Under the pieces are notes generated by a model that was given only the letters and a program-made list of their open reading frames with translations, was not told the DNA's origin and searched no databases. A stretch of 64,000 nt of DNA. It comes from Lasiosphaeris hirsuta. Its lineage: Eukaryota; Ascomycota; Sordariomycetes; Sordariales; Lasiosphaeriaceae. Position numbers and translations under genes: made by a program. The DNA lies in the NCBI GenBank assembly GCA_030549175.1, contig JAUKUA010000008.1, positions 434,001-498,000 of the forward strand, in the 5' to 3' direction. The first letter of the stretch is position 1; every line of letters starts with the position of its first letter. Positions 1,660 through 52,500 of the stretch are shown piece by piece.

Positions 1660-1893
1660 TACTACGGTCAAAAGGACCGCTTGTGTAAGCGTTACTTTGG
1701 TAGTCCTTTACATAAACACTGACATGACATATTATATGGTGGTGTAAATAATTTATAAAGGATGGCCCGTTGGCAATCAGTCTAGAGGGTACGCTACCAT
1801 TATATGGCAGCGCACCCCCTGTGCTCAATTGAGCGCAGGGACTACGCACAACGGACTAACCTATCTAGGCTATCTACATTTTTCCATGTAACA
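1660..1893 (-). repeat. 5' LTR of A1
   Basis: The LTR is 234 bp and on the minus strand runs from TGTTACATGG to a terminal GTAGTA (GTAGCA in less mutated copies). It aligns end to end with the LTRs at 11290-11523, 35409-35642, 44776-45009 and 47222-47455. The family LTR holds a near-perfect stem-loop around ATATAATG and the palindrome GCTCAATTGAGC. It is visibly less TA-enriched than the internal sequence beside it. Confidence 0.93.
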
Positions 1894-2114
1894 AATGTAG
1901 ATAGCCTAGATAGGTTAGTCCGTTATGCACAGTCCCTATGCTTAATTGAGCACAGGGGGTACGCTGCCATATAATGGCAGCGTGCCCTCTAGACTAATTA
2001 CCAACGGGCCATCCTTTACAAATTATTTATACCACCATACAATATGTCATGTTAGTATTTATGTGAAGGACTACCAAAGTAACGTTTACACAAGCGGTCC
2101 TTTTGACCGTAGCA
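1894..2114 (+). repeat. 5' LTR of A2, missing its first 13 bp
   Basis: It matches the 234-bp family LTR from base 14 to its end at GTAGCA. The missing terminus coincides exactly with the outer end of the A1 LTR. It contains the perfect hairpin CGCTGCCAT-ATA-ATGGCAGCG (around 1962-1982), whose loop includes a TATA-like motif that may be part of the promoter. Confidence 0.92.
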
Positions 2115-2116
2115 AG

Positions 2117-2333: not shown

Positions 2334-2352
2334 AAAATAACAAGACAAGCGG

Positions 2353-5300
2353 ATGTACATTGTTAAGCTCCACGAAGCCTAACAGGTGTCCGACTATATC
2401 TCTAAGAATCTGAGAGTCAAGTAGTAGACTAACGTAAAGCCGGAGCGTAAGTAAGTACTCGTGGCGTTAACAAGCTTAATTTTTCTTACCAACGGAACAT
2501 TTACCTACTTAAGAAGCCCTATTTAGAATAGCTATCCAAACGTTTAGAACGTTAACAACTACATTCCGAAAGAGCACTTCAAAACTTTAGTCGATAACTA
2601 CCTTTAAGAAGTATAAGAAGGCCTCTACCTAATATTAGAGTACTTAAGAACGGTAGAAACGTTAGAACCAAGGGGTATCTAACAGACCCTAATAACGTTA
2701 CCACCCACGGACCTAATACTCAGAGATACGTTAACTATCTTACTACTAAGTAACGTGACGTTAGTAGCTAGACGGGATACTATACTAAGGGAGTCCGATA
2801 TTATATTATAAGACGAAGGATTCTTACCCGTGACATTAAGTGAAATAACGGAAGACTATATGCCAGGGTAAGACCCGGATCTACTTAAGGATCGTATTAA
2901 CGAGTAACCTCTTGGTCTACCTCCATTTCTACCTCTAAGGTAATTAATAATCGAGGAATAGCTTACGTAGATGATATAGGTTATGTAGACATATCTTACG
3001 ATTACTCTTATAAGGACTAATATGCCGGCGACCGGCTTCGTAGCTTAAGTGAGTGTTCCGTTAGTGATAAGAGACTTTAACTAGTAGATTTATCATATCG
3101 GTCTCTTCTAGCTAGATATGTTACCGGAGAAAGACGGCAAAGCCTAACTATTTTACGACGGTAAGTAACTTTGTTACCGTAATGTTTATCTTTAGACCGT
3201 GTATATTAAGAAAGCGGCCTTAGATCTAGATAGATATAATACTTTTTATAAAAAACTATTTTTATTATTTAGGAGATTAGCCTTCTAATAGTATAAGCTT
3301 TAATTATTAACTAAGGATAAGAAGTACGTAAGACTAAGTATCTTTAACTAGGTTTTAATTATCTTTTAATAGTTTAGACTGAAGTTAGTAGACATAGAAC
3401 GATAGTTTAGTTAACCTATAAGTAAGTTTAAGGCCGAAGATAACATTACTAGTAAGTCAGTCTGTATATATATAATAGATTGTTTTAAGTACGTAAGAGT
3501 ATAGGGAGATAAGAAGGATTTTTAATTACTTACTAGGCTATATAATAACTTATATAAGAAATTATGTCAGCTCTATATTTGACTAATTACTAGAGATATA
3601 CTTCGTGATTATCTTAATAAGATTAAAGAAAAGATATTAGTATTTTATAACACGTTAGTTACTAAAGGAATAGTTATAAGAGTAATTAAGACGATGTTAT
3701 ATAATAATAATATCGTAACTTATAGCGACGATAATACTAACTAGGCTAGTAGAGATAGAAGATAAGGTTAAGTTAATAATCGAGAAAGATAAGCTACTTA
3801 GTAAGGTAATAACGATAATCAAAGGTATTTTAATAATAGAGGGTTATCCTTTAGTAACTAGAGAAGTAGATAGTAAGGGCGTTTATATTTTAGTAATGTG
3901 AACGAATGTAGCTATGATATATACTTATACTAGAGATTTATTAACTAAGTACCTAGAGGTTTCTAGCCGAACTAAGTGTTCTAGAGGTGGCGGTACTACG
4001 GCTAACGTTAACCTTATAACAACGGTACTTTTACCTATATTAACAATAAGTTTATCTATAAAGAAAGTACTAACGTCTAGTAGTAATATAAGTAACTCGA
4101 GGTTAAGGGATATTACTTTATTAATAAAAAAAAATTAAAAAAGGATACTATTACTTTTCTTAATATTACGATGTCTCCTTTCTATTTAGCTTTCTTTCGT
4201 TCTTCCGTAGTACTAAGTAATCTTACCTAGTATAAGATACTTAATAAGAAAAAGTACAAATGTTCAAGTTATATAAAAACATTTAACTATGGAAATAAGT
4301 TATAGTAATATATCTAGACAGAGTATGTTAAATAACCGTAGAAGCTAAAAGAAGGTTTAATCGTATATTAGGAACCTAGGTTCCTAGAAGAGCCCGTGTC
4401 TCTTATACCTCCTATAAAGCCCGTAATCTTTAGGGAGTAAAGGTTCCTTATAAAGCTCATAACTCCGAGATAGCCTATCCGTTTAAGAGAAGAGTTAGAA
4501 AGTTTTAAGGAGTTAGAGGATAATAAGAACGTGAGGATAAGTAAGAACGACATAAGAAAGGTTCGTTTTAAATAGGTATCTATAGAAGATACGGAAGAGA
4601 AAGATAAAGGATTTATCATAACCTAGGAAAGTTACTTAATAAAAGACTAAAGTAGTAATAACTTAAGTAATAAAGAAGCTTATGTTATCTTTAAGGAAAG
4701 ATAGGTTATTAAAGTAAATCTATTACTTTATCCCGTGGGTTCTTAATATCCGAAGAAGTCCTATCTTCGAATTAACGTTAAAGTAGACTTAAACGATAAA
4801 CCTACATACGTTTACTTTGACATTAGTAACTTAATTAACCTCGTCGATAAAAAGTAGATTTAAAAATAGGTACGTTATTTATATTAGGTATCGTAGGAAC
4901 CCCGTTTCGTTTAGGGAGTTAACTTAAGAACTTATATCGATAAGTAAGCTAAGTTCGATTTTTACATTCCTAGTATAACGTAATAAACTAGTGTTAACGT
5001 TTATTTTTATATAAAGGCCGATGTTATTAACGAGTTAAGGCCGTATATATTAATCGGTATTATCTTTATAGATGATAATAATATAATTATCGACTTTTTA
5101 AAAAATAACGTTACTTTCTAATCTATTAGAAACATAAGGACAAGGATAGACTTAGTTACTAAACCTCGCCGAGAGATTATATATAAGGTTATTACTTTCT
5201 AAAATGTTATTTTTATATCTAGAAAGAAAGGTTTTATTAAGACTAAGATATATGATCTACTAAAGTTATTACCTAAGGAGACATATATTTATAACAAGTT

Positions 5301-8300
5301 ATAAACTTTTTATCTTATAGTAACATAAAAAGATATCTAAGATAATAATATTAACTACTTAATATCTTATATAACATACTTCTATAACTAGACATTTAAG
5401 TTAATAATTATTAAGAGAGGTTAAAAGATTAAGAAAGTTTAAGAATAGCCCGGAGTAAAATAGGTATTTATATTCGATTTAGTAAGTTATAATATAAATA
5501 TAAGAGTAAAGATTACGTAAGCCTCCTTTATAAGATATTATATAAAGCTTAATAACGTTAATATAGAAGAATGTTATTTAGTTATCTTTAATAAAATCTA
5601 TTAACTTAAGAGTAAAATAGAAGATGTTTTCGTTTATATTTTAAGCGGTTAAGTAAGTAATGAGACAAAGATCGTCGATACCTTATAGTTACTTCCTTTA
5701 AGCATAAGATATTATATATTATCATATGGAGTTAAGAAGCTAGCCGATTTTCCTACTATTAAAAGTAAGGTTAAAATAAGTATTTATAAGATAAACGGAG
5801 CCTTCGTAAAAAGGATTAAGGACTTCTTAGATAAGTATAATATATTCCGTGATAAAGGTATCATACCTATGTCCGATAAGAGTAAAATAAGGATTAACCT
5901 TGTTAAGGGATAGTAAAACTAAATTAAGCTAGTAAAGCTATATCCCTAGGAAGCGAAAGATTACGTTTTTGCCATGTAGAAACTTGATACTATATACACG
6001 GTTAGAAAGCTAACTTTTCTTAACAAACTAACCCTTATCGTATATCTTACCTTCGTGATATAAAAAACGGTTAACAAAATAGAGAAGAACTATCTTATTA
6101 TCGACTTACATATCTTAAATAAGGTTACGGTATTAAATATCTACCCGTTCGTAAACTAAGACGATATAATCCTCGTAATATAAGGAAAAAAGGTTTTCTC
6201 CATAATAGATATCTCTAGTTTCTTCTATTAGTTACTAGTCTATAACAAATATCGTAATCGTATAGTTATTGTCATAAAAAGAAGGTTTAAGCGATTAAAT
6301 ATGGTACTTATAAGATTTAAGAACTTACTTACTTTCGTCTAACGTTTTATAAACTACCTATTTTGTAATAGTTAAGATTTCGTACGGGTATATATCGATG
6401 ATATCGTCGTCTTTAGTACTATAGAAGACGAGTACTATAAGTACATAAGTAAGGTACTTAAGCTCTTAGAAGATATAAGAATATATATTAATACTAGTAA
6501 GTTATTTATGGCCTATCTAATGATTTAACTTCTAAGATATATTATTAACGGAGAAGGAGTTACAAAAACGGATAATTAAATTATGGCTTTCTAGAAGATA
6601 AAGTTCCTAGATACGTTAGATATACTCGAGATCTATCTAAAAATAGCTAGATAGCTACGATATAAGATTACTTAATATAACATTAAAACTAGACTATTAT
6701 AGAAAAAAAAGATGATATTACTAATATTAGGCCGTGAGGAAAGAAAGATTATAAACGGAAATATAAAGAACGTGAGAAAGGCTTATATATCGAAAATACG
6801 TTTTTAACCTTCAAAAGATAAATAGGAATCTTTCTACTTGTTATAAGAATACTTATATATATAATTTATAACTTATTATCACGTTAAAACAAAGTTATTA
6901 TTCTTTAAAGTCGATACTTATAAAAGAGCTTTTAGCCTCTTCGTTTTCTAACTTAAGGATAACTAAGATAAGAAAGTAATCTTAGGGCGTAACCTCGTAG
7001 CAGAGAGGGTTCTACCGATTATGTTCTTATTAAAAGTAACTATTATGACTAAGTAGAAATATAGATTTATAGAGATAGAGGTTATAGTAGTTGTATAGGT
7101 AGTTAGAAAGCTTAGAAAGATAGTTTAGTCAAACTAACATCGTTTAAATATCCTAACGAATTACGCTTCTACTAAAGATATCGTTAAGTATACGTCTTTA
7201 GTAACAGTAAACCTAAATAAGGCTAACCTTAAGTTTGTAAATATAGTAAACTAGCTTTCTCAGTTTGAGATCGACATTTTTTATATTCTAGACGTTCTTA
7301 ACGTCGTTTCTAATATATTCTTATAGCTTCTAACGTTCGAATAAGACTTTAAGAAGCTTAAGGTAGATAAATCTAACAAGCTTAATAATATTTAAGCTAT
7401 GGTATAGAATATAGAAGATAAGATACCTATTATAATTACTTAGGTAAGTACCAAGTTTATTATTAGTAACTCGTTTAAAACTATCCTATATGAGGGTTAT
7501 AAAAACGATACGAAATATAATAAGTTAATAACTAGTATTAACATTAGAATGGAAAAACGTACTAAAGTACCTAAGAGATATCTATAACTCCTAATAAAAC
7601 CATTTAAGATTAGAGATAAGTTACTATATTACGTTAATTACAATAGAAATCATCATCTCTATATCCTAAGAATATATATTAAGATAGTACTTAAGATAGT
7701 TTATGATAAACCGTATTATTTCGGCTTTTATAAGATGATAGATAACCTTTAAAATATATACTTTACTAATAAAGTATAGAAAGTAAAATGTTTTATCTAG
7801 TTTTATAAGGCTTACCGCTAAAACTAAACCGATAAGTAACTTACGAACGGGGAAATGATATCTATCTATATAACCCTATAGCCATTTTATATTATCGTAA
7901 TAAATTTCATTATCAGCTTACTTATAGTCTTATTAGCTAGAACGATATAATATCTCGAAGGCTATAACATACTTAACACACTTTATATAGTTATATATAA
8001 GTTCTTTAAAAAAACACTTTTACTGATAGGATACTGTACCTACATAGCTAAGGATTAGGTAAAAGTATTAACGAGATTATTATTTATATATAACTAGGGA
8101 CTACTAATAATAATTATTAACGATAAAAACCTAAAGTTTACCTCGGTATTATAGAAAGAGATTTTTAATATTTATAATATTAAACTACTCTTTTCTACTA
8201 CTTACTACTTATAAACTAATAACTAGTCAAAAAGAATAAACTAAACGGTCGAAATTACTATTCGTTTCTTTACCTTTATAATAGATAAAGAGATTTTATA

Positions 8301-9225
8301 AGTTAATATACTACTATCACTTTAGTTTAACATTAATAATACGTTAGTTATTACGATTAGTAGATTACCTAACGAACTAGTCCTTAGATTTCGGCTAAGG
8401 TCTCTAGTAGATATTCTAATTATAAAAGAAGATATAAGAGTAGGTACCGAGGTAGCGGAGGTTCTTAGGGGATATTACCAAAAGGAAGTAATTTAACTTC
8501 TTAATATCGTTGACGTAATGGTAAAACTCTACTATGACGACAAGTATATACCCGAGATCTTTAAGATCAGAGATACTATTTACTTACGCCTTTACAAGGA
8601 TTATTATCTATCCGATAAGCTAAAAAGGAAATGGTTACTTTAAAAGGTAAGCCCGTTTAAGATTATTAGTAAGGTAAAGATAAGTAATCTAGCTTATAAG
8701 CTTAATTTCCTAGTGTCATAGAGAGTGTATCTAATCGTCTTAGTTACGTAACTATACCGCCCTTAATAAGGTAAAGATCCTTTTAGCCGAAAGTAATAGG
8801 TATTACTAGCCGTTAAGATTAACGAATAAGAAAAATAAGAGCTTAACCATATCGTTAGTAGTAAAGTAAGTTAAAAGAAGAAAAACCTAAGCGTTAAGTA
8901 CCTCGTCTATTAGAAGAACTATGAAGTTAAGAACGATATATAGGAGCTAAGAGTAAACTTATTACTAAACATAAGAGATATTATTATAAGTTATGAAGTA
9001 AGGAATCCTATCGACTAGGATAAGGAGCGTAAGAAGAAGGATATTAAAGCCGTCGAGTACGTTAAGGTCGATATTATTCCTACTATAGAAATAGTAGTTA
9101 AGCTTCCACAATACCAAACCGCTAGATAAGGGATATTTTCGAGGACGAACAGCTTTCTTAATAAGGTAAGAAAATATTCTAGCCATAATATCAGATCTTT
9201 TCTTTCTTTTACTTTCCTTTATTAA
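2353..9225 (+). pseudogene. gag-pol: A2 gag-pol polyprotein, one frame, RIP-broken
   Basis: From the ATG at 2353 to a TAA at 9223-9225 (conserved in A3 and A4) a single frame of 2291 codons holds without a frameshift. Its only stops are of RIP type. The order is gag with a degraded cysteine motif near residue 510; retropepsin with the catalytic region near 823 and an ILIG-FID motif near 900; reverse transcriptase with YIDD at 1347; and RNase H about 1517-1646 with a degraded version of the family's ERNYWPTELE motif. A zinc-binding integrase domain lies about 1756-1837. In the integrase core the first Asp (1851) reads Asn, the second is present (1924), and the Glu (1960) reads Lys; the last two are spaced as DD35E. 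A chromodomain-like segment follows at about 2177-2216. Gag and pol share one frame, so separation would rely on the protease. The enzyme is dead. Confidence 0.9.
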
Positions 9226-9532
9226 CCTTACTTAGCTATATAAGCATCTTCTTACTATAAGCTAAAGAGACTAAATGATCAGATAGAAGCCTTATTATAG
9301 CGTCGTTTTTCCTCTGTCAATTTTTCTTATTATAAGGCCCTAGCCTACTAGGCTAGGCTACTAACTAAAAAACCCCTCCTATAAAATTTTTACGTTTTTC
9401 TTTTTTATAACTATTACTACCCTCGTCACCGCCATTAAGTTATACCTTTACACTTTCTTTATATCCTATTATTATGTTTATTTATGCTTTGAGATAGTTA
9501 AATTTAACTATTTGTAAGAGTACATTCGTAAA
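9226..9532 (+). other. Spacer between pol and ORF3, with a hairpin
   Basis: No coding sequence is evident here. At 9339-9357 a perfect stem-loop reads CCTAGCC-TACTA-GGCTAGG. It is nearly intact in A3 and weakened in A4, and is followed in the element sense by a run of A and CCCCTCC. One-base length differences between A2 and A3 in this stretch contrast with the perfectly kept frames on both sides, which supports it being non-coding. Confidence 0.6.
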
Positions 9533-11143
9533 ATAAAACGTTAATTCGAGGTAGCTCGAGTTAAGCTAAATAATCTAGATATGTCTAAAGATAGTCTAAT
9601 AGCTAAGAGTCCAGATTCCGTATATCTCTAAATTTTAGCCGAAGAAACCTTAAAACATGTTAGATAAGCCTAAGAAAGTGTTACCGTTACTACCGAATAT
9701 AGTAAAGACGACTATAACGAGCCTAAGCTTAACGATCTATCTAACTACGATTCTAACTACGATAATAATAAGAGTAAGCGTGTAAAGGATAATAACTTTA
9801 ATCTTACTATAGAAGGTAAACTTAATAACGAGGATAAAGAGATAACCTTAGATTCCTCGGGTAGCTTACCTAGCTTTTTTACTAACTTACCTATTAAATA
9901 TCGTACCCCTAAGAAGTATCACTACTAAGACGTAAAGATACTTTAGAAACAGGCTAAGTAAAGAGTTAAGTAACTTATTACCGGCGGTAAGAGGCCTAAG
10001 GTCTCACTAGACTATAGAGCCTACTTTGAGTTTAAATACCATAATAAGTCAGTAAGTAGACAAAAAGTTTATAAATATGTCGCTTTTACGATCGACGATC
10101 CGAAGCTTCTCTTTATAGTAAATAAAGAGATTAAGGGTATCTTTACTAAAAGATTAAAGTCGGTTATTAAAAACTAGGGTCTAATTAACAACCTATATAT
10201 ATACTAGTTAAAGAAGTTACTAAATAAGACTAAAGCGACATATAATAAGTAAGATATTAATGATAACTACTTATCTTCAAAGGTATTTATCCTTACGACT
10301 ATTTACTATTATTTTATAGCCACTTTAAATAAGAAACTATCTTTAGTTCTTATTTACCTTAATTACCTTAACCTTACATAAGTTCATACCTAAGCTAACT
10401 AAGTAAATACCCTCATTACCGGTACGAACTAGTACTAACATACGTAGTTTTAATACCTTAAGTATTAACTTACTAATAAGACTATAGAGCTTAAGAAGGT
10501 CAAAGTAGTCTATACGTCTTCTATAACTAGTATACTTACTGACATATACGATCTTTAGAAGTATCTTAAGAGTAAGATTGATACTCTTAAAAATAAGATT
10601 AAGAAGCTTCCGAGTTATAATAAGGTCCACGAAACTTTCTAGGCTATGAAGAGAATAACAATAAATAACCTCGATAAGTATGTTACTAAGAAGTAAGTTA
10701 ACGTTCTAACGGGCCATATAAACAAGGTCAGCCCGAAGACTAAAGTACTTAACAACTAAGTCTAAGATCTTTAGAAAGACCTGACAAAGCTTAACAAGGT
10801 TATTAAGTAACCATCAGCTACGTAACCTATAGCCGCCTTAACTACTCGTTTAAGTATCCCTATACCTGTTATAACCCTCAGCACCTCACGTAAGTACCCT
10901 ACTAAGGATACCCAAAGCGAAATCATAACTATAGATACTCTACCTAAGAAGTAAAATAAGCACGGTACCCTTACTAACCTATTCGGTACTAACGCTTCTA
11001 AGGTTAGTACACGTAGTAAGTCGGTAGCCTTTTCTCCTACTTAAGAGACCCTTACCAAAGGTATCGGTCGTAAGAAGCCTACCGTTAAGAAGTCGCCTCC
11101 CAAGATGACTAAGTGGAAGACGCTCTTCGACACTGTAGACTAG
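9533..11143 (+). pseudogene. A2 ORF3: unrecognised 536-residue frame downstream of pol
   Basis: I do not recognise this protein. The start codon is intact as ATG in A3 and A4 and reads ATA here. The frame runs 1611 nt to a stop at 11141-11143, exactly as long as in A3 and A4, with only RIP-type internal stops. In order it has an acidic Asn/Asp-rich segment (residues about 65-120, with YDSNYDNNKSKR), a middle region with conserved blocks such as AYFEFKYHNK, a leucine/lysine-rich stretch that could form a coiled coil (about 330-430, with DTLKNKIKKL and DLTKLNKVIK), and a Pro/Ser/Thr tail rich in lysine ending KKPTVKKSPPKMTKWKTLFD. I see no signal peptide or membrane segment, so a typical envelope protein is unlikely. 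A structural, nucleic-acid-binding or chromatin-targeting role is only a guess. Confidence 0.8.
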
Positions 11144-11289: not shown

Positions 11290-11523
11290 TGTTACGTGGA
11301 AAAATGTAGATAGCCTAGATAGGTTAGTCCGTTGTACGTAGTCCCTACGCTTAATTGAGCACAGGAGGTACGCTGCCATATAATGGTAACGTACCCTCCA
11401 AACTGATTGCCAACGAGCCATCCTTTACAAATTATTTACACCACCATATAATATATCATGTCAGTGTTCATGTGAAGGACCACCAAAGTAACGCTTACAC
11501 AAGCGGTCCTTTTGACCATAGCA
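11290..11523 (+). repeat. 3' LTR of A2
   Basis: A full 234 bp from TGTTACGTGG to CATAGCA, colinear with the other family-A LTRs. It is followed directly by LINE sequence starting ATTAT, which would be the target duplication; the partner copy is not visible because A1 occupies the other end. Confidence 0.94.
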
Positions 11524-35408: not shown

Positions 35409-35642
35409 TGCTACGGTCAAAAGGACCGCTTGTGTAAGCGTTACTTTGGTGGTCCTTCACATGAACACTGACATGACATATTATATGGTAGTGTAAATAA
35501 TTTGTAAAGGATGGCCCGTTGGCAATCAGTCTGGAGGGCGCGCTGCCATTATATGGCAACGTACCTCCTGTACTCAATTAAGCGTAAGGACTGTACATAA
35601 CGGACTAACCTATCTAGGCTATCTACATTTTTCTACGTAACA
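35409..35642 (-). repeat. 3' LTR of A3
   Basis: 234 bp, ends TGCTACGG and GTAACA on the plus strand. Compared with the 5' LTR of A3 it differs by scattered C/T and G/A changes. Confidence 0.94.
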
Positions 35643-35788: not shown

Positions 35789-37399
35789 CTAGTCTACAGT
35801 GTCGAAGAGTGTCTTCCGCTTAGTCGTCTTAGGAGGCGACTTCTTGGCGGTAGGCTTCTTACGACCAATACCTTTAGTAGGGGTCTCTTAAGTAGGAGAA
35901 AAAGATGCCTACTTACTACGTGTACTAACCTTAGGAGCGTTAGTACCAAATAGGTTAGTAAGGGTACCGTACTTATTTTACTTCTTAGGTAGAGTACCCA
36001 TAGCTATGATTTCGCTTTGGATATCCTTAGTAAGGTACTTGTATAAGGTACCGAGGGTCATAACAGGTATAGGGATACTTAAACGAGTAGTCGAGGTAGC
36101 TATAGGTTACGTAGTTGATAATTATTTAATAACCTTGTTAAGCTTTGTCAAGTCTTTCTAAAGATCTTAGACCTAGTTATTAAGTACTTTAGTCTTCGAG
36201 CTAACCTTGTTTATACCGCTTATTAAAACGTTAACTTACTTCTTGGTAACGTACTTATCGAGGTTATTTATCGTCATTCTCTTTATAACTTAGAAAGCTT
36301 CGTAGACCTTATCGTAGCTTAGGAGCTCCTTAATCTTATTCTTAAGGGTATTAATCTTATCCTTAAGATACTTTTAAAGATCATATACGTTAATAAATAT
36401 ATTAGCTATGAAAGACGTATAGACTACTTTAACTTTCTTAAGTTCTATAGTCTTATCGGTAAGTTAACACTTAAGGTACTAAAATTATGTACGTTAGTAC
36501 TAGTTCGTACCGGTGATAAGAACGTTTGTTTAGTCGGCCTAGGTATGAACTTATATAAGGTCGAGGTGATTAAGATAGATAAGAACTAAAGATAACTTCT
36601 TATTTAAAATAGTTATAAGATAATAGTAGATAGTCATAAAGATAGATACCTTTAAAAATAAATAGTTATTATTAATATCTTACTTATTATATGTTATCTT
36701 AGCTTTATTTAATAACTCTTTTAATTGACGTATATATAAATTATTAGTTAGACCTTAGTTTTTAAAACCCGACTTTAATCCTCTAATAAAGATATTCTTA
36801 ATCTCTTTATTTATTATAAAGAGAAGTTTTAGATTATTAATTATAAAGGTAATATACTTATAGGCTTCTTATTTACTTATTAACTTATTATAGTATTTAA
36901 ACTTAAAGTAGGCTTTATAGTTTAGTAAGACCTTAAACTTCTTACCGCCGGTAGTAAGTCATTTAACTCTCTACTTAGCCTGTTTCTAAAATACCTTTAT
37001 ACCTTGGCGATAGTACTTCTTAAGGATATAATATTTAATAGGTAAGCTAGTAAAAAAGCTAGGTAAGCCATCTAAGAAATTTAAGGTTATCTCTTTATCT
37101 TCGTTATTAGGCTTACCTTCTATAGTAAGGTTAAAGTTATCATCCTTTACATACTCGCTCTTATTATTATTATATTTAGAATCGTAATTAAGTAAATCGT
37201 CGGGCTTAGGCTTATCATAGTCGTTCTTACTATATTCAGTAGTAACAGTAACACTCTCTTAGACGTATCTAATACGTCTTAAGGTTTCTTTGGCTAGAAT
37301 TTAGAGGTATGTAAGATCTAAACTTTTAGTTATTAAGTTATCCTTAGATACGTTTAAATTATTTGGCTTAGCTCGAGCTACCTCGAATTAACGTTCCAT
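35789..37399 (-). pseudogene. A3 ORF3, unrecognised, intact ATG
   Basis: Same frame and exactly the same length (1611 nt) as ORF3 of A2 and A4. It starts with an intact ATG (ME-R, then TAA where CAA is expected) and ends with TAG at the same codon as A2. The acidic N-terminal segment (KYNNNKSEYV), the middle block AYFKFKYYNK, the leucine/lysine-rich stretch (NTLKNKIKEL, DLTKLNKVIK) and the basic C-terminal tail (KKPTAKKSPPK) are all kept. Differences from A2 are mostly transitions. I infer a real protein of 536 residues, function unknown. Confidence 0.82.
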
Positions 37400-37707
37400 T
37401 TTACGAATATACTATTACAAATAGCTAAATTTAGCTATCTCAGAGTATAAATAAACGTGATAGTAAGGTATAGAGAAAGTGTAAAGTTATAACTTAATAG
37501 TAATGACGAAGGTAGTAATAGTTATAAGAAAGAAAACGTAAAAATTTTTATAGGAGGGGTTTTTTAGTTAGTAGCCTAGCCTAGTAAGCTAGGGCCTTAT
37601 AATAAGAAAAATTAACAGAGAAAAAACAACGTCATAATAAGACTTCTATCCGATTATCTAATCTTTTTTAACTCATAGTAAGAAAGTACTTATATAGCTA
37701 AGTAAGG
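37400..37707 (-). other. Spacer between pol and ORF3 in A3
   Basis: Matches 9226-9532 of A2. The hairpin at about 37575-37600 keeps one arm CCTAGCC and one arm with a single mismatch. No coding sequence seen. Confidence 0.55.
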
Positions 37708-40700
37708 TTAATAAAGAAAAGTAAAAGAAAGAAAAGATTTAATGTTATAGCTAAAATACTTCCTTACCTTATTAAGAAAGCTATTCGTCCTCGAAAATAC
37801 TTATTATCTAGCGGTTTGATACTATAGAAGCTTAACTACTATTTCTATAGTAAAAATAATGTTAACCTTAATATACTTAACAACCTTAATATCCTTCTTC
37901 TTACGTTTCTTATCTTAGTCGATAAGGTTCCTTACTTCGTAACTTATGACGGCATCTCTTATATTTAGTAATAAGTTTACTCTTAGCTCTTATATATCGT
38001 CCTTAGCTTTATAGTTCTTCTAACGGACGAGATACTTAACGCTTAGGTTCTTTTTCTTCTAGCTTACTTTATTACTAACGATATAGTCAAGCTTTTATTC
38101 TTCTTATTTATTAACCCTAATAGCTAGTAGTACCTATTACTTTTAGCTAAAAGGATCTTTACCTTGTTAAGGACGGTATAATTACGTAATTAAGACGATT
38201 AAGTATATTCTCTATAACGTTAGAAAGTTAAGTTTATAAGCTAAATTACTTATCTTTACTTTATTAATAATCTTAAACGGGCCTGTTCTTTAAGGTAACT
38301 ATTTTCTTTTTAACTTACCGGATAGATAATAACTCTTATAGAAGTATAGGTAAATAGTATCTTTAATCTTAAAGGTCTTAGGTATATACTTATCGTTATA
38401 GCGGGGTTTTATTATTACGCCAACGATATTAAGAAGTTAAATTACTTTCTTTTAATAATATTTCCTAAGAACCTCTGCTACCTCAGTACTTACTCTTATA
38501 TCTTCTTTCATAGTTAGAATATCTACTAGGGACCTTAGCTAAAATCTGAGGACTAGTTCGTTAGATAATTTACTAATCGTAATAGTTAATATGTTATTAA
38601 TGTTGAACTAAAGTGATAATAATATATTAACCTATAGAACCTCTCTGTCTATTATAAAGGTATAGAAACAAATAGTAATCTTAACTGTCTGATTCGTTCT
38701 CTTTAACTAACTATCGGTTTATAAGTAATAAGTAGTAAAAAAGAACAGTTTAACATCATAGATATCGAAAATCTCTTTTTATAATACTAAGATAAACTTT
38801 AAGTCTCTATCACTAATAATCATCGTCGGTAGTTCCTAGTTATATATAAATAATAATCTTATTAATACCTTTACTTAATCCTTAGCTATGTAGGTATAAT
38901 TTCCTACTAGTAAGAATGTTTTTTTAGAGAACTTACACGTAATTATATAGAGTGTGTTAAGTATGTTATAGCCTTTGAGATATTATATCGTTCTAGCTGA
39001 TAAGACTATAGGTAAGTTAATAATAAAATCTATTATAATAATACAAAATGGCTGTAAGATTATATAGATAGATATCATTTCCTCGTTTATAAGTTACTTA
39101 TCGGTCTAGTTTTAACGGTAAGTCTTATAGAACTAGATAAAACGTTTTACTTTTTATACCTTATTAGTAAAGTATACATTTTAAAGGCTATCTATTATCT
39201 TATAAAAACCGAAATGATACGATTTATTATAAACTATCTTAAGTACTATCTTAACGTACGTTCTTAAGATATAGAGGTGATAATTTTTATCGTAATCGAC
39301 GTGATATAACAACTTATCCCTAATCTTAAATGGTCCTATTAAAAGTCGTAGGTACCTCTTAGGTACTCTAACGTGTTCTACCCGTTATAATATAATAGGT
39401 TTTTCTATTCTTGCGTTGATACTAGCTATTAACTTACTATATTTCGTATCGTTTTTATAACCTTCGTATAAGGCGGTTCTAAATAAGTAGCTAATAATAA
39501 GCTTAGTACTTACCTAAGTAACCGTAATAGGTATCTTGTCTCTTACGTTCTATACCATAGCTTAAATATTATCGAGCTCGTTAGACTTATCTATCTTAAG
39601 CTTCTTAAAGTTTTATTTAAACGTTAGAAGCTACAAAAGTATATTAGGAACGATATTAAGAATGTCCGAGATATAAAAAATATCGATCTCAAACTAAGAA
39701 AGCTAGTTTACTATATTTATAAGCATAAGGTTAGCCTTGTTTAAGTCTATCGTTACTAAAGACACATACTTAACGATACCTTTAGTAGAAGCGTAATCTG
39801 TTAGGACATTTAGACAATGTTAGTTTAACTAAACTATCTTCCTAAGCTTCTTAATTACCTATATAACTACTGTAACCTCTACCTTCGTAAATCCGTATTT
39901 CTACTTAGTTATAATAGTTACTTTTAATAAAAATATAATCGATAGAACCTTCTCTACTATAAGGTTACGCCCTAAGATTACTTTCTTATCTTAGTTATTC
40001 TTAAGTTAGAAAATAAAGAGGTTAAAAGCTCTTTTATAAGTATCGACTTTAAAGAATAATAACTTCGTTTTAACGTGATAGTAAGTTATAAATTATATAT
40101 ATAAGTATTTCTACAGTAAGTAGAAAGATTTCTATTTATCTTTTAAAGGTTAAAAACGTATTTTCGATATATAAGCCTTTCTCACGTTCTTTATACTTTT
40201 ATTTATAATCTTTCCTTCCTTATAGCTTAATGTTAATAATACCGTCTTTTTCTTTTATAACAGTCTAGCTTTAATATTATACTAGGTAATCTTATTTCGT
40301 AGCTATCTAGCTATCTTTAGATAGATCTTAAGTATATTTAACATGTCTAGGAACATTATCTTCTAAAAAGCTATAATTTGATTATTCGTTTTCGTAACTT
40401 CTTCTCTATTAATAATATATCTTAGGAGTTAGATCGTTAAATAAACTACAAATGACTTACTAGTATTAATATATATTCTTATGTCTTCTAAGAGCTTAAG
40501 TACTTTACTGATATACTTATAATACTTATCTTCTATAGTATTAAAGACGACGATATTATTAATATATACCCGTACGAAATCTTAACTATTATAGAATAGG
40601 TAGTCTATAAAACGTTAGGCGAAAGTAAGTAAGTTCTTAAATCTTATGAGTACTACGTTTGATTACTTAAGCTCTCTTTCCATGATAATGACTATATAAT

Positions 40701-43700
40701 TACGATGTTTGTTATAGACTAGTAACTGATAGAAAAAACCAGAGATATCTATTATAGAGAAAACCTTTTTTCCTTATATTATAAGGATCATATCGTCTTA
40801 GTCCGTAAGTAGATAAACGTCTAGTACCGTAACCTTATTTAAGATACATAAGTCAACGATAAGACAGCCCTTCTTTACTCCGTTAACCGTTCTCTATACT
40901 ACGAAGATAGGGTATATAATAAAGGTTAGTTCGTTAAGAAAGGTCAGCTTTCCGGCTACGTATATAGTATCGAGCCTCTATGTAGCGAAAACGTAATCTT
41001 TTGTTCCCTAGAAATATAGCTTTATTAACTTAATTTAGTTTTACCATCCCTTAACAAGGTCAATCCTTATTTTACTTTTATCAAATATAGATATAATACG
41101 TCTGTTATAAAATGTATCATACTTATTTAGAAAGTCTTTAATCCTTTCTATAAAGGTTCCGTTTATCTTATAGATACTTATTTTAGCCTTACTCTTAATA
41201 ATAAGAAAATTAGCTAGCTTCTCGATTTTATATAATAACATATGATATCTTATCCTTAGAGAGAGTGGCTATGAAATATCGACGATCTCTATCTCGTTAT
41301 TTACTTAACTACTTAAAATATAAACGAAAACATTCTTTATTTTACCCTTAAGTTAGTAGATTTTATTAAGGATAATTAAATAATATTTTTCTATATTAAC
41401 GTTATTAAGCTATATGAAATATCTTATAGAGGAGGCTTATGTAATCCTTACTCTTATATTTATGTTATAACTTGTTAAATTAAACATAAATACCTACTTT
41501 ACTCCGGGCTATTCTTAAACTTTCCTAATCTTCTAACCTCTTTTAATGATTATTAGCTTAGATGTCTAGTTATAAAAGTATATTACATAAGATATTAAGT
41601 AGTCGATATTACTATCTTAGATACCTTCCTATATTAATATAAGATAAAAAGTCTGTAACTTATCATAAATATATGTCTCCTTAAGTAATAACTTTGACAA
41701 ATCGTATATCTTAGTCTTAATAAAACCTTTCTCTCTAAGTATAAAAATAACACTTTAGAAAGTAGTAACCTTATGTATAATCTCTTAACGAGGTTTAATA
41801 ACTAGGTCTACCCTTATCCTTATATTTCTAATAGATTAGAAAGTGACACTGTTTCTTAAGAAGTCAATAGTTATGTTATTATTATCTATAAAGGTAATAC
41901 CGATTAATATATATAGCCTTAGCTCGTTGATAATATCGGCCTTTATGTAAAAGTAAGCGTTGATATTAGTTTATTATGTTATATCGGAAATGTAAAAATC
42001 GAACTCAGCTTACTTATCGATGTAAGTTCTTAAGTTAACTCCCTTGACAAAACGGGGTTTTTATAACACCTAGTGTAAATGGCATATCCATTTCTAAATC
42101 TACTTTTTATCGACGAGGTTAGTTAAGCTACCAATATTAAAGTAGACATGTGTAAGTTTATTATTTAAGTTTACTTTAACGTTAATTTAAAGATAAGACT
42201 TCTTTAGATGTTAAGAGTCCACGGGACGAAGTAGTAAGTTTACTTTAATAACCTACCCTTCCTTAAGGATAATATAAGTTCCTTTATCACTCGAGTTATT
42301 ACTACTTTAGTCCTTTATCGAGTAACTTTCTTAGGCTATGATAAATTCTTTATCTTTCTTTTCTATATTTTCTATAGATACTTATTTAAAACGAACCTTC
42401 CTTATATCGTTCTTACTTATTCTTATGTTCTTATTGTCCTCTAACTTCTCAGAACTCTCTAGCTCTTCTCTTAAACGGATAAGCTACCTCGGAGTTATGG
42501 GCTTTATAAGTGACCTTTACTTCTTAAAGATCACGGGCTTTATAGAAGGTATAAAAGATATAGGCTCTTTTAGGAACCTAGGTTCCTAGTATACGATTAA
42601 ACCTTTCTTTAGCTTCTACGGTTATTTAACATACTTTATCCGGATATGCTACCACAACTTATTTCTATAGTTAAATGTTTCCGTATAACTTAAACATTTA
42701 AACTTTTTTTTATTAGGTATCTTATACCGGGTAAGGTTACTTAGTATTACGGAAGAACAAAGGAAAGTTAAATAGAAAGGAGACGTCGTAACATTAAGAA
42801 AAGTAATAATATCTTCTTTCGATTTTCCTTTACTAATAAAGTAATACTTCTTAACCTCGAGTTACTTATATTACTACTAGATGTTAACACTTTCTCCGTA
42901 GATAAACTTATTATTAATGTAGGTTAAAGTGCCGTTGTTATAAGGTTAACATTGGCTATAGTACCGCTACCTCTAGAATACTTAGTCCGGCTAGAAACCT
43001 CTAGGTACTTAGTTATTAAATCCCTAATGTAAATACATATTACGGCTATGTTTATTTATGTTACTAAAGTATAAACGTTCTTACTATCCGCTTCTTTAGT
43101 TACCGGAGAATAACCTTCTGTTATTAAAGTATCTTCGATTACTATTATTATCTTACTAAGTAACTTATCTTTCTTAATCATTAACTTAATCTCGTCTTTT
43201 ATCTTTATTAACCTAGTTAATATTAATATTACTATAGGTTATGGTATTATCATTATATAATACCGTCTTAGTTATTCTTATAACCGTTTCTTTAGTAACT
43301 AACGTATTACGAGATACTAATACCTTTTCTTTAATCTTATCGAGGTAATCACAAAGTATATCTTTAGCGGTTAGTCGAATATAGAGCTGGTATAATTCCT
43401 CGTATAGGTTATTATATAGCTTAGTAAGTAATTAGAAATTTTCCCTATCTTCTTATACTCTTACGTACTTAAAATAATCTATCACGTATATATAAACTAA
43501 CTTGTTAGTAATATTATCTTTAATCTTAAACTTACTTATAAGTTAACTAAACTATCATTCCATATCTACTAGCTTTAGTCTAAATTATTAAAGAATAATT
43601 ATGACCTAGTTAAAGATACTTAATCTTATATACTTCTCATCCTTAGTTAATAATTAAAACTTATATTATTAAAAGACTAATTTCCTAAATAATAAAAATA

Positions 43701-44604
43701 GTTCTTTATAAAGAGTATTATATTTATTTAAATTTAAGGCCGCTTCCCTAATATATATAGTCTAAAGATAAATATCACGGTAACAGAGCTACTTACTATC
43801 ATAAAACAGTTAGGCCTTACCGTCTTTCTCTGATAGTACGTCTAGCTAAAGGAGACTAACATAATAAATCTACTAGTTAGAACTTCTCATCGCTAATAAA
43901 GTACTTACTTAAGCCACGGGGCCGGTCGTTAACGTACTAGTCCTTATAAGAATAATCATAAGATATGTTTATATGACCTATATCATCTACATAAGTTACT
44001 TCTCGATTATTAATTACCTCGGAGGTAAAAATAGAAGTAAACTAGGAGGTTACTCGTTAACGTGATCTTTAAGTAGATCTAGGTCTTACCTTGGCATATA
44101 GTCTTCCGCCATTTTACTTAGTATTATAGGTAAGAATCCTTCGTCTTACGATATAATATCGGACTCCCCTGGTATAGTATCTCGTCTGGTTACTAGTGTC
44201 ACGTTACTTAGTAGTAGGATGGTTAACGTGCCCCTGAGTATTAGGTCCATGGGTGGTAACGTTGTCAGGGTCTGTTAGATACCCCTTAGTTCTGGCGTTT
44301 CTACTGTTCTTAAGTACTCTGATATTAGGTAAAGGCCTTCCTATACTCTTTAAAGGTAGTTGTCGACTAGAGTTTTAAAACGTTCTTTCGGAATGTGGTT
44401 GTTAACGTTCTAGGCGTTTAGATAGCTGTTCTAAATGGGGCTTCTTAAGTAGGTAAATGTTCCGTTGGTAAGAAAAATTAGGCTTACTAACGCCACGAGT
44501 GCTTACTTACGTTCCGGCTTTACGCTAGTCTATCACTTGACTCTCAGATTCTTAGAGATGTAGTCAAACATCTGTTAGACTTCGTGGAACTTAACAATGT
44601 ATAT
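37708..44604 (-). pseudogene. gag-pol: A3 gag-pol polyprotein, one frame, RIP-broken
   Basis: 6897 nt (2299 codons) from the codon matching the A2 start, here ATA, to a conserved TAA. The length is a multiple of three. The clean 65-codon block at 41041-41241 lies between protease and reverse transcriptase (KAKISIYKINGTFIERIKDF). RT, RNase H, integrase and chromodomain follow to the left in the same order as A2. All interruptions I examined are TAA/TAG of the RIP kind. Confidence 0.9.
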
Positions 44605-44775: not shown

Positions 44776-45009
44776 TGCTACGGTCAAAAGGACCGCTTGT
44801 GTAAGCGTTACTTTGGTAGTCCTTCATATGAATACTGACATGACATATTGTATGGTAGTGTAAATAATTTGTAAAGGATAGCCCGTTGGCAATCAGTCTA
44901 GAGGGCACGTTACCATTATATGGCAGCGTACCCCCTGTGCTCAATTGAGCGTAGGGACTACGCACAACGGACTAACCTATCTAGGCTATCTACATTTTTC
45001 CACGTAACA
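44776..45009 (-). repeat. 5' LTR of A3
   Basis: Full 234 bp. The outer end GTAACA is followed by the target duplication GTTAT. Confidence 0.94.
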
Positions 45010-47221: not shown

Positions 47222-47455
47222 TACTACGGTCAAAAGGACCGCTTGTGTAAGCGTTACTTTGGTGGTCCTTCACATGAACACTGACATAACATATTATATA
47301 GTGGTGTAAATAATTTGTAAAGGATAGCCCGTTGGTAATCAGTCTGGAGGGCACGCTACCATTATATGGCAGCGTACCTCCTGTGCTCAATTGAGCACAA
47401 GGACTACACACAACGGACTAACCTATCTAGGCTATCTACATTTTTCCACGTAACA
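47222..47455 (-). repeat. 3' LTR of A4
   Basis: 234 bp; the terminal TGC has become TAC by RIP. The five bases outside are TAAGT; the partner duplication is not in the window. Confidence 0.92.
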
Positions 47456-47601: not shown

Positions 47602-49212
47602 TTAGTCTATAATGTCGAAGAGTGTCTTCCGCTTAGTCGTCTTAGGAGGTAACTTCTTAGTGGTAAGCTTCTTATGACCGATACCTTTAGTAGAAGTCTC
47701 TTAAGTAGGAGAAAAGGCTACTGACTTATTATGTATGCTAACCTTAAGAACGTTAGTGCCGAATAGGTTAATAAAGATACCGTACTTGTTTTACTTCTTA
47801 GGTAAAGTATCTATAGCTATGATTTTACTCTAGGAATCTTCAGTAAGGTACTTACGTGAGGTACCGAGGGTTATAATAGGTATAAGGGTACTTAAACGAG
47901 TAGTCAAGGTAGCCGTGGGTTATGTAGTTAATAGTTACTTAATAACCTTGTTAAGCTTTGTCAGGTCCTTTTAAAAATCTTAGACCTAGTTATTAAGTAT
48001 TTTAGTCTTCAGACTGACTTTATTTATATAGCCCGTTAAAACTTTAACTTACTCTTTAATAACATATTTATCGAGGCTATCTATCGTCATTCTCTTTATA
48101 GCTTAGAAAGCTTTATAGACCTTATCGTAGCTCGGAAGCTCCTTAATCTTATTCTCAAAGGTATTGATCTTACCCTTAAGATACTTCTAGAGATTATATA
48201 TATTAATAAGTATACTAGCTATAAAAGACGTATAGACTACTTTAGCCTTCTTAAGCTTTATAATCTTATTAACGAGCTAGTACTTAAGGTACTAAAACTA
48301 CGTATGTTAGTATTAGTTCATATTGGTAATAAGGACATTCGTTTAGTTAACCTAGGTATGAACTTATATAAGGTCGAGGTGATTAAGATAGATAAGAATT
48401 AAAGATAACTTCTTATTTAAAATGGCTATAAGATAATAATAAATAGTCATAAGGATAGATACTTTTAAAGATAAGTAATTATTATTAATATCTTACTTAT
48501 TATATATTGTCTTAGTCTTATTTAATAACTTTTTTAACTAGTATATATATAAGTTATTAGTTAAACCTTAGTTCTTAATTGCCGACTTTAATCCTTTAGT
48601 AAAGATACTTTTAATCTCTTTATTTATTATAAAAAAAAGCTTTGGATCGTTAATTATAAAGGTAACATATTTATAAGCTTTTTATCTATTTACTAACTTG
48701 TTATAATATTTAAACTCGAAGTAGACTCTATAGTTTAGTAAGATGTTAAGCTCCTTACTATTAATAGTAAGTTACTTAGTTTTTTACTTAGCCTATTTCT
48801 AAAGTATCTTTATATCTTAGCGGTAATACTTCTTAGGGATATAATATTTAATAGGTAAGCTAGTAAAAAAGCTAAGTAAGCTATCTAAGAGATTTAAGGT
48901 CATCTCTTCATTTTTCTTATTAGGCTTACTTTTTATAGTAAGGTTAAAGTTATTATCTTCTATATACTTACTCTTATTATTATCGTAGTTAGAATCGTAG
49001 TTAAATAGATCGTCGGGCTTAAGCTCGTCGTAGTCGTTCTTACTATGTTTGGTAATAACGGTGATATTCTCTTAAGCTTATATAATATGTCTTAAGGTTT
49101 CTTTGGTTAGAATTTAAAGATACGTAGGATCTAAACTCTTAGTTATTAAGCTGTCCTCAGGTACATTTAGATTATTTAGCTTAGCTTAAATTATCTCGAA
49201 TTAACATTTCAT
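47602..49212 (-). pseudogene. A4 ORF3, unrecognised, intact ATG
   Basis: The third copy of the 1611-nt frame, with ATG in place (MKC, then a RIP stop, then FEII) and a stop at the same codon, here TAA. Conserved segments are the same as in A2 and A3. With three copies of identical length and no indel, whereas the adjoining spacers carry length changes, the frame must have been kept by selection before RIP acted. Confidence 0.82.
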
Positions 49213-49521
49213 TTTATAAATATACTCTTATAAATAACTGACTTTAACTATCTCAAAGTATATATAAATATAATAGTAAGATATAAAGAAAGTATGAAGA
49301 TATAACTTAATAGTAGTAACGAGGGTAGTAATAATTATAAGAAAGAAAACATAAAAATTTTATAAGAGGGGGGTTTTTTTTATTAGTAGCTTAGCTTAGT
49401 AAGTTAGGATCTTATGATAAGAAAAATTAACAGAGGAAAAACGATATTATAATAAGGCTTTTATTTAATTATCTAGTCTTTTTAACTCATAGTAGAATGG
49501 TACTCGTATAACTAAGTAAGG

Positions 49522-52500
49522 TTAACAAAGGAAAGTAAAAGAAAGAAAAGATTTGATATTATAATTAAAATATTTCCTTACCTTGTTAAGAAAGTTGTTC
49601 GTCTTCGAAAACACCTATTATCTAACGGTTTAGTACTATAGAAGCTTAACTACTATTTTTATAGTAGAGATAATATCGACCTTAATATACTTAATAGCCT
49701 TAATATCTTTTTTCTTACGCTTCTTATCCTAGTCGATAAGATTCCTTACTTTGTAACTTATGATGGTATCTCTTACGTTTAGTAATAAGTTTACTCTTAA
49801 CTTTTATATATCGTCCTTAGCTTCGTAGTTCTTTTAGTAGATAAGATACTTGATACTTAGGTTCTTTTTCTTTTAACTTACTTTACTATTAACGATATAG
49901 TCGAGTTTCTATTTTTCTTATTCGTTAACCTTGACGGCTAGTAGTACTTATCACTTTTGACTAAAAGGATTCTTACCTTATTAAAGATAGTATAGTTATG
50001 TAATTAAGATGATTAGGTATACTTTCTATGATACCGGGGAGTTAAGCTTATAAGTTAGATTACTTGTCTTTACTTTGTTAATAATCTTAAATAGGCTTAT
50101 CCTTTAAGGTGACTATTTTCTTTTTAGCTTGCCGGATAGATAGTAACCTTTATAGAGGTATAGGTAAATAATATCTCCGATTTCAAAGGTCTCGGATATA
50201 TACTTATTATTATAATAGAGTTTTGTCATTATGCTAACGATGTTAAAAAGCTAAATTACTTCCTTTTGATAATATCTTCTAAGAACTTTTATTACCTCGG
50301 TACCTACTTTATACCTTCTTTTATAGTTAGAATATTTACTAGGGACCTTAGCTAGAATCTAAGGACTAGTTCGTTAGATAATCTATTAATTGTAATAGTT
50401 AGTATGTTATTAATATTAAACTAAAGTAATGATAATATATTAACTTACGGAACCTCTCTATCTATTATAAAGGTATAGAAATGAATAGTAATCTTAACTG
50501 TCTGGTTTGTCCTTTCTAACTAACTATTGGTTTGTAGGTAGTAAATAATAGAAAAGAGTAATTTAATGTTATAGATATTAAAAATCTCTTTCTATAATAT
50601 CGAGATAAACTTTTAGTCTTTGTTACTAATAATCATCGTTAGTAATTCCTAGTCGTACATAAATAATGATTTCGTTAATACCTTTATCTAATCTTTAGCT
50701 ATGTAAGTATAGTATCCCATTAATAAGAGTAGTTTTTTAAAGAACTTACATATAACTATATAAAATATATTAAGTATGTTATAGCCTTTAAGGTACTATA
50801 TCGTTCTAGCTGATAGGACTGTAGGTAGGCTAATAATAAAATCTATTATGATGGTATAGAATGGCTATGAGATTACGTAGATAGGTATTATTTCTTTGTT
50901 TGTAAGCTACTTGTCGGTTTGGTTTTGGTGGTAGATCTTATAGAACTAAATGAAACGTTTCGCTTTCTATACCTGGTTAGTAAAGTATATATTTTAAAGG
51001 CTGTCTATTATCTTATAGAAACCGAAATGATATGATTTATCATAAACTATCTCGAGTACTATCGTAACATATGTTCTTAAGATATAGAGGTAACGATTTT
51101 TATCATAATTAATATAATATAATAACTTGTCCTTAATCTCAAATAGTTCCATTAAAAGTTGTAGGTACTTTTTAGGTACTCTAGCACGTTCTACCCGTTA
51201 TAATACGATAGATTTTTCTATCTTAGCGTTGATACTAGCTATTAACTTACTATATTTCGTATCGTTCTTATAACCCTCGTATAAAATAGTTCTAAACGAG
51301 TCGTTGATAACGAGCTTAGTACTTACCTAAATAATTATAACGGATATCTTATCTCCTATGTTCTATACCATGGCCTAGATATTATCGAGCTCGTTAGATT
51401 TATCTATCTTAAGCTTCTTAAAGTTTTGTTCGAACGTTAGAAGCCATAAGAATATATTAAGAACGACATTAAGAATACTTAGGATATAAAAAATATCGAT
51501 CTTAAACTAAGAAAGTTAGTTTACCGTATTCGTAAGCTTAAGATTAGCCATATTTAAGTCTATCGTTACTAAAGACGTATACTTAACGATACCTTTAGTA
51601 AAAACGTGATTTATTAAGACGTTTAGGCGATGTTAGTTTAACTAAACTATCTTCTTAAGCTTTTTAACTACCTATATAACTATTATAACCTTTACCTCCA
51701 TAAATTCGTATTTTTACTCGGTTATAATAATTACTCTTAATAAGAATATAATCGGTAGAACCCTCTCCGTTATAAGGTCGTACCTTAAGATTACTTTCTT
51801 ATCTTAGTTATTCTTAAGTTAAAAAACGAAGAGACTAAAAGCTTCTTTATAAGTATCGACTTTAAAAAATAATAGCTTTATTTTAACGTGATAGTAAGTT
51901 ATAAATTGTATATATAAGTATTCTTATAGTAGGTAGAAAGATTTCTATTTATCTTTTAAAGGTTAAAAACGTATTTTCGATATGTAAACCTTTCTTATGT
52001 TTTTTATACTTCCGTTTATAATCTTTCCTTCCTCACGGCCTAATATTAGTAATATTATCTTTTTCTTTTATAACGGTTTGGCTTTGATATCATATTAGGT
52101 AATCTTATGTCATAGTTATCCGGCTATCTTTAGATAGATCTCGAACATATCTAACGTGTCTAGGAACTTTATCTTTTAAAAAGCTACAATTCGATCATCC
52201 GTTTTCGCGACTCCTTCTTTGTTAATAATATATCTTAGGAATTAGATCGCTAGATAAGCTATAAATGACTTACTGGTATTAATATATATCCTTATGTCCT
52301 TTAAGAGCTTAAGTACCTTATTTATATGTTCATAGTACTCGTCTTCTATAGTACTAAAGATGACGATGTTATCAATATATACCTATATAAAATCTTAACT
52401 ATTACAGAATAGATGGTTTATAAAACGCTAGGTAAAAGTAAGTAAGTTCTTAAATCTTATAAGTACCACATTTAATCACTCGAGCTTTCTTTTTATAACA

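What the first reader, a model, noticed from the sequence alone, without database searches (positions are those of the whole stretch)
9533..11143. A third, unrecognised ORF of exactly 1611 nt in three copies of family A
Downstream of pol, A2 (9533-11143), A3 (35789-37399) and A4 (47602-49212) each carry a sense frame of identical length, starting ATG (ATA in A2) and stopping at the same codon. Only RIP-type stops interrupt it, and there is no indel, while the spacer before it varies in length. The predicted 536-residue protein has an acidic Asn/Asp-rich N-terminal part, a possible coiled coil and a basic Pro/Ser/Lys tail, with no membrane segment, so it does not look like an envelope protein. 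It is the best candidate here for an undescribed retrotransposon function.
Basis: partly seen in the sequence, partly recalled or inferred. Interest (0 to 1): 0.78.

Follow-up and report, generated by a model that had tools for sequence, protein, structure and literature searches.

The report
Extra gene in a fungal retrotransposon
A mutation-riddled fungal jumping gene carries a real extra gene after its usual ones; the gene matches no known family but shares one domain with an apparently ordinary gene of the same fungus, so the element may have taken it from its host.

Summary
A2, A3 and A4 each carry a 1611-nt sense frame between pol and the 3' LTR; the genome has at least 42 DNA matches to it. 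Of 845 internal stops in 31 RIP-mutated copies, 838 lie at codons that RIP turns into stops. Such a frame arose in 0 of 4000 simulations.

Constraint shows instead against two older stop-free relics (dN/dS 0.28 for one; excess third-position change in both).

The element is a chromodomain Ty3/Gypsy retrotransposon. ORF3 follows 32 of 36 pol 3' ends examined. No Pfam or PDB family fits; no membrane segment. One stop-free frame on C10, away from any pol match, shares a domain of about 120 residues, 35% identical.

Best reading: an accessory gene, probably host-derived, encoding an oligomeric nuclear DNA- or chromatin-binding protein made from its own promoter. The gene is well supported; the function is inference.

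The parts
9494..11143 (+).
35789..37438 (-).
47602..49251 (-).
9130..9493 (+). A2 spacer between pol stop and ORF3; in the open copy pyrimidine-rich and without ATG for the last about 195 nt (candidate internal promoter and 5' UTR)
37439..37803 (-). A3 spacer
49252..49617 (-). A4 spacer
2353..9129 (+). A2 gag-pol (one frame, many stops); RT part 6166-6948, pol 3' part ending in the chromodomain 8644-9129
   Evidence: most domain calls made on the C8 copy
37804..44604 (-). A3 gag-pol (many stops); RT part 40009-40791
49618..55738 (-). A4 gag-pol, truncated at its 5' end inside gag (no leader or 5' LTR found); RT part 51822-52604
   Evidence: (pair I7)
1887..2114 (+). A2 5' LTR
11290..11523 (+). 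A2 3' LTR (234 nt)
44776..45009 (-). A3 5' LTR; element flanked by 5-bp duplication ATAAC
35409..35642 (-). A3 3' LTR
47222..47455 (-). A4 3' LTR

Best explanation
ORF3 is a genuine accessory gene of a chromodomain Ty3/Gypsy retrotransposon (gag-PR-RT-RH-INT-chromodomain in one frame, then ORF3 in the same sense). SHOWN: the frame is real and lies inside the LTR-bounded unit, the window copies were killed by RIP, and amino-acid change was restrained between the element lineage and older relics. SHOWN by sequence only: an acidic N-terminus, a domain of about 120 residues shared with a frame outside the element on contig C10, a probable coiled coil (about residues 290-430) and a basic Pro/Ser/Thr/Lys tail with SPxK/TPxK-type motifs; no membrane segment. 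INFERRED: the gene came from a host gene related to the C10 gene; it is expressed as its own mRNA from a promoter in the pyrimidine-rich spacer; the protein oligomerises through the coil, enters the nucleus, and binds DNA or chromatin with its tail, where it helps the element's DNA-integrase complex reach or engage chromatin, or modulates host silencing of the element.
For: Naturally open copy of 549 codons; 0 of 4000 simulated frames as long, and codon-position composition like that of the element's own pol. 838 of 845 stop cells are RIP-type. Two stop-free relics: 129 codons with dN/dS 0.28, bootstrap pN/pS 0.34-0.60, differences by codon position 37/33/64 (p 4e-4); 63 codons, 20/16/36 (p 2.5e-3). 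ORF3 follows 32 of 36 pol 3' ends. The open copy lies inside an element with LTRs 99.6% identical and duplication CTGCC. Domain shared with the C10 frame: E 4.5e-9 in the genome search, 9e-13 pairwise (25% over 277 aligned positions, coil included), 35% over the 133-column core. Tail pI 11.1, N-terminal pI 3.6, maximum 19-residue hydropathy 0.95, heptad score reached by 5 of 200 shuffles. Weak coiled-coil hits to SMC- and Rad50-type models, far below cut-off. The spacer's last 120 nt are 70% pyrimidine against at most 62.5% in the gag-pol and ORF3 stretches scanned; a simple scan found no branch-point-plus-acceptor pattern.
Against: No transcript, localisation or binding data. The coiled coil and nuclear role are predictions, and the NLS-like and SPxK patterns are recalled motifs. 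The C10 frame's own heptad score was reached by 14 of 200 shuffles, so its coil is less certain. Direction of transfer (host to element or the reverse) is not resolved. The relics are single fragments of 129 and 63 codons. No relative was found outside this genome, so constraint could not be tested across species.
Confidence: 0.5

Rival explanations
1. Passenger: a host gene fragment transduced by read-through, carried by the element without a function of its own.
For: A frame outside the element shares a domain; copies within this genome show no selection signal (transversions 25/18/23 by codon position).
Against: Third-codon-position excess in two relics and dN/dS 0.28 in one; an open frame of full length in one element copy; presence behind 32 of 36 pol 3' ends.
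Confidence: 0.2
2. Structural or particle role: ORF3 is a second Gag-like or nucleic-acid chaperone protein acting in the cytoplasmic particle.
For: Basic tail and coiled coil would suit RNA binding and assembly; Pfam reports no CCHC knuckle in the element's gag pieces.
Against: No significant similarity between ORF3 and the L038 gag-pol DNA (best E 0.92); a gag region is already present upstream, judged by eye.
Confidence: 0.15
3. Envelope-like protein as in retrovirus-like plant and animal elements.
For: [quoted passage not shown]
Against: No hydrophobic segment: maximum 19-residue hydropathy 0.95 in 536 residues; pI 11 tail and acidic N-terminus.
Confidence: 0.02
4. Not a gene: an open frame left by chance or by RIP composition.
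For: In the three window copies the antisense frame carries about as many stops (30-34) as the sense frame (29-34, terminal stop included).
Against: Open 549-codon frame in a 56% GC copy, 0 of 4000 simulations; protein-level constraint against relics; longest antisense frame beginning with ATG, GTG or TTG in the open copy's 2.7-kb locus is 134 codons.
Confidence: 0.02

Closest known systems
Fungal chromoviruses (chromodomain Ty3/Gypsy elements), including those drawn with an 'add. ORF' of unknown function in PMC2864245 Figure 3
   Same: LTRs, single gag-pol frame, RT-RH-INT-chromodomain order; that paper's legend shows additional ORFs of unknown function have been seen (section 5 and passages read)
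   Different: Which element carries that ORF and its sequence are not in the text held, so identity with ORF3 could not be tested; the extra enzyme named there is a dUTPase, and none was listed here
Boty of Botrytis cinerea with the additional gene brtn
   Same: Fungal element with gag-pol ending in a chromodomain and an extra gene between pol and 3' LTR; passages only
   Different: brtn is antisense to gag-pol; ORF3 is sense.
Maize Grande gene23 and other plant elements with additional ORFs
   Same: Accessory gene near the 3' end; the review reports gene23's protein as nuclear and its transcription from a promoter upstream of the gene (PMC7264820, parts 1 and 2 of 3 read)
   Different: Antisense, plants, no sequence comparison made
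Bdelloid rotifer LTR elements with captured ORF3 types
   Same: ORF3 acquired from other sources (abstract of PMC5408684; position downstream of pol from a passage of PMC5718144)
   Different: Those encode an env-like fusion glycoprotein, GDSL esterase or DEDDy exonuclease; none of these among the families listed for ORF3

Membership tests
Ty3/Gypsy chromovirus | RT followed by RNase H, integrase and a C-terminal chromodomain | tested here: met
   RVT_1 9.7e-22, RT_RNaseH 1.2e-11, Integrase_H2C2 1.7e-6, rve 0.0015 (below its cut-off), Tf2-1 SH3 1.2e-9; Chromo 1.8e-9, on the C8 copy
Ty3/Gypsy chromovirus | TG...CA LTRs with short target-site duplication | tested here: met
   234-nt LTRs 99.6% identical, duplication CTGCC in the C8 copy; ATAAC in A3, none evident for A2
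Ty3/Gypsy chromovirus | aspartic protease upstream of RT | tested here: inconclusive
   Asp_protease_2 E 0.0087, below cut-off
LTR retrotransposon with conserved sense additional ORF between pol and 3' LTR | same-sense ORF present in most copies | tested here: met
   32 of 36 pol 3' ends
LTR retrotransposon with conserved sense additional ORF between pol and 3' LTR | ORF under selection | tested here: met
   two relics only; no signal among young copies
Envelope-like ORF | transmembrane segment | tested here: not met
   maximum KD-19 0.95
Boty/brtn type | antisense extra gene | tested here: not met
   ORF3 and the chromodomain frame are on the same strand of L037
Boty/brtn type | BRTN protein homology | not testable with these tools
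dUTPase-bearing fungal chromovirus | dUTPase domain | tested here: not met
   not among the best 25 of 35 families for ORF3 at E up to 10, nor listed for the gag-pol pieces searched
Captured host gene | homologous gene outside the element | tested here: met
   728-aa open frame on C10, shared domain only, no pol match near it
Captured host gene | host gene is the ancestor, not a derivative | not testable with these tools
   no fungal genome collection on hand; protein searches found no relative

The most novel reading that the evidence does not exclude
A fungal retrotransposon family has taken over part of a host nuclear coiled-coil gene and kept it as a trans-acting chromatin factor that counters or exploits the host's own heterochromatin and RIP defence, so that a host gene (on C10) and an element gene (ORF3) now compete for the same partner.
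Probability: 0.1. Interest if true: 0.85.

Novelty: new variant of a known kind. Interest (0 to 1): 0.5.

Why it matters
Extra genes between pol and the 3' LTR are mostly unexplained. The review read here, discussing antisense ones in plants, says that similar gene sequences are lacking outside the elements (PMC7264820). Here one is constrained, sense-oriented and shares a domain with an apparent host gene in the same genome, which makes both its origin and its target testable. It also shows that 31 young RIPped copies can hold no usable selection signal, and that constraint then has to be read from copies and relics that RIP left alone.

Tried and rejected
Rejected: indel avoidance as evidence of constraint (ORF3 2 indels in 18 copies, two pol pieces 2 in 14 and 4 in 16; some 5' pieces look worse because alignments ran into truncated copies); dN/dS among the young copies (no non-RIP signal); envelope; ORF3 as a duplicate of gag; a known Pfam, NCBIfam or PDB family (only weak, mostly coiled-coil hits; the Pfam and NCBIfam ones lie below cut-offs).

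Led nowhere: protein searches with ORF3 and with the C10 frame (0 hits each among about 8000 scored candidates). The pol control with the same tool gave 1021 hits including named fungi, so fungi are held; but the word filter limits sensitivity and only the candidates sharing most words were scored. Viral contigs gave nothing, and the pol control there gave nothing either, so that collection is uninformative; prokaryote contigs gave nothing. A scan for spliced-mRNA signals printed two donor-like positions and no acceptor-like one. Passages of PMC3248453 and the abstract of PMC11963269 added only background.

Full report
WHAT WAS CHECKED. The window lies at 434001-498000 of a 957-kb contig (C13) in a 44.4-Mb genome of 14 contigs. 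A DNA search of the own genome gave 42 matches to this stretch, a lower bound because 40 of 52 candidates were scored.

RIP. I aligned 32 of the 42: the three in the window, 28 other near-full-length matches, and the 74%-identical match at the end of contig C8; ten shorter matches were left out. 22 of 32 have no indel in the 1611 nt; the other ten have one to three events each. The 31 copies other than the C8 one carry 19-33 internal stops each (20-34 counting the terminal stop). Relative to it, every other copy shows 222-491 C-to-T or G-to-A changes, but only 0-10 transversions and 1-14 other transitions. The changes follow CpA (80% of sites changed), then CpG (44%), with CpC and CpT at 20%. 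Of 845 internal stop cells, 838 fall on codons reading CAA, CAG, CGA or TGG in the open copy, and each of its 33 such codons is a stop in at least one other copy.

Apart from RIP the copies are near-identical, so they hold almost no selectable variation. The 66 columns where some copies differ from the open copy by a transversion fall 25/18/23 on codon positions 1/2/3 (p 0.55). Indels per kb per copy, counting only copies aligned over 85% of a piece at over 65% identity: ORF3 0.067 (18 copies), the two best pol pieces 0.089 (14 copies) and 0.155 (16 copies), spacer 4.1 (18 copies, one rearranged copy giving 11 of 27 events), 3' untranslated piece 0.38 (18 copies). The other gag-pol pieces and the leader score 0.95-4.9, which I put down to alignments running into truncated copies.

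WHY IT IS NEVERTHELESS A GENE. In the open copy, 0 of 4000 Markov simulations gave a frame of 549 codons or more (maxima 327 and 385). Codon-position composition (GC 0.60/0.42/0.65) resembles that of the same element's pol (0.55/0.42/0.61). Two older relics without stops in the matched part give an independent test. At C7:3447771-3448163 (L041), 129 codons give differences 37/33/64 by position, NG86 dN 0.34, dS 1.2, ratio 0.28, bootstrap pN/pS 0.34-0.60, third-position excess p 4e-4. At C7:6423562-6423750 (L042), 63 codons give 20/16/36, p 2.5e-3. These tests pool both branches, and the relics are short; that RIP spared them is inferred from the open frames.

THE ELEMENT. The C8 copy has 234-nt LTRs 99.6% identical and a CTGCC duplication. 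Gag-pol is one frame with 20 stops in its 5' two-thirds and none from about L038:5385 to its end, so this copy is not an intact element. Pfam finds RVT_1, RNase H, integrase zinc-binding and SH3 domains, a weak aspartic protease and a chromodomain at the end of pol: a chromodomain Ty3/Gypsy element. A3 has the duplication ATAAC. Of the 70 pol matches listed for the genome (70 of 140 candidates scored), 36 reach the 3' end of the 634-residue query; 32 of these have ORF3 within 1.5 kb downstream on the same strand. The four misses include one 26%-identical other family and one whose ORF3 lies about 2 kb away (coordinates). Within the window the only ORF3 matches are A2, A3 and A4, so the window's other repeat families carry none that this search recognises.

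THE PROTEIN. The open copy's product has an acidic N-terminus (residues 1-120, pI 3.6), a basic stretch, a middle domain, a probable coiled coil and a basic tail (residues 431-536, pI 11.1, 35% Pro+Ser+Thr). Maximum 19-residue hydropathy is 0.95, so there is no membrane segment. The best heptad score in 285-430 was reached by 5 of 200 shuffles. Pfam (best E 0.027, below cut-off), NCBIfam (SMC- and Rad50-type coiled coils, far below cut-off) and PDB (best E 0.013) give nothing firm. SPxK/TPxK motifs and NLS-like clusters are patterns I recognise from memory, not tested families.

A HOST RELATIVE. A six-frame search of the genome with the protein gave 69 matches, 64 of them with stops inside. 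One of the five stop-free ones is different: a 728-codon frame on C10 (3696008-3698191, L040), matching residues 168-288 at E 4.5e-9. Pairwise E is 9e-13, and the 133-column alignment of the shared domain is 35% identical with the run ATIYCHP invariant. No pol match lies near it. It continues into a possible coiled coil (heptad score reached by 14 of 200 shuffles). The first 320 residues of that frame have no counterpart in ORF3, but a 31%-identical second piece of them lies elsewhere on C10. I read this as a host gene and as the likely source of part of ORF3. The reverse, domestication of an ORF3 piece, is not excluded. The frame ends just after an A-run, and another open frame with coil-like and basic sequence follows.

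EXPRESSION. Between the pol stop and ORF3 lie 365 nt in the open copy, of which the last 120 are 70% pyrimidine, against at most 62.5% in any 120-nt stretch of the gag-pol and ORF3 sequence scanned. Three ATGs lie upstream but none in the last roughly 195 nt. The 300 nt before the C10 frame are also pyrimidine-rich, 65% or more in four of five 60-nt bins. A simple scan found no branch-point-plus-acceptor pattern. An own promoter is therefore the better guess, untested.

KNOWN OR NOT. [quoted passage not shown]). In fungi the precedents found were Boty's antisense brtn (passages), dUTPase domains and an unspecified 'add. ORF' in a figure legend (PMC2864245, section 5 and passages), and a statement that a clade of fungal chromoviruses carries additional genes (PMC2774666, passages). 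I saw no paper describing a sense ORF3 with this make-up in the ten searches listed in Tried and rejected; most subscription papers are not in that library. The verdict is therefore a new variant of a known kind.

Recounting one search gave 22 of 32 copies without indel (not 24), the spacer lengths were restated, and A4's gag-pol was extended to 55738.

Noticed in passing
L040:809-2995 and 3030-3524 (G000:C10): Frame of 728 codons outside the element with a possible coiled coil; it ends just after a run of nine A, and a further open frame with a basic tail follows. Frame break, intron or assembly error not decided.
   Followed up: partly
L038 and L037 (G000:C8 end, 6294244-6304244): Element copy with graded damage: 20 in-frame stops in the 5' two-thirds of gag-pol, none in the last third or in ORF3, and LTRs 99.6% identical; it ends about 0.8 kb from the contig end.
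   Followed up: partly
L037:2400-2457: The sequence just before the 3' LTR is not purine-rich, so no ordinary polypurine tract was seen next to the LTR; purine-rich sequence lies a little upstream.
   Followed up: no
L038:548-785: The leader between 5' LTR and gag holds a motif repeated twice (AGGCTCTTAACTGAGTCGGCG followed by similar bases).
   Followed up: no
window 1-3076: A2's 5' LTR abuts an inverted copy of related sequence (inverted repeat arms 698-1881 and 1893-3076, 88%), suggesting a rearranged or head-to-head insertion; no target-site duplication was evident for A2.
   Followed up: no
L038:2301-3995: Gag region shows only a weak C2H2-type finger (Pfam E 0.056-0.071, below cut-off) and no CCHC knuckle match.
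   Followed up: no
G000:C13 (957 kb), C14 (844 kb), C2 (603 kb): Small contigs carrying several RIPped copies; possibly accessory chromosomes. Not tested.
   Followed up: no
L043 (G000:C10:647311-647688): A second, stop-bearing relative of the N-terminal part of the C10 frame (31% identity), hinting at an otherwise unnamed host gene family.
   Followed up: partly
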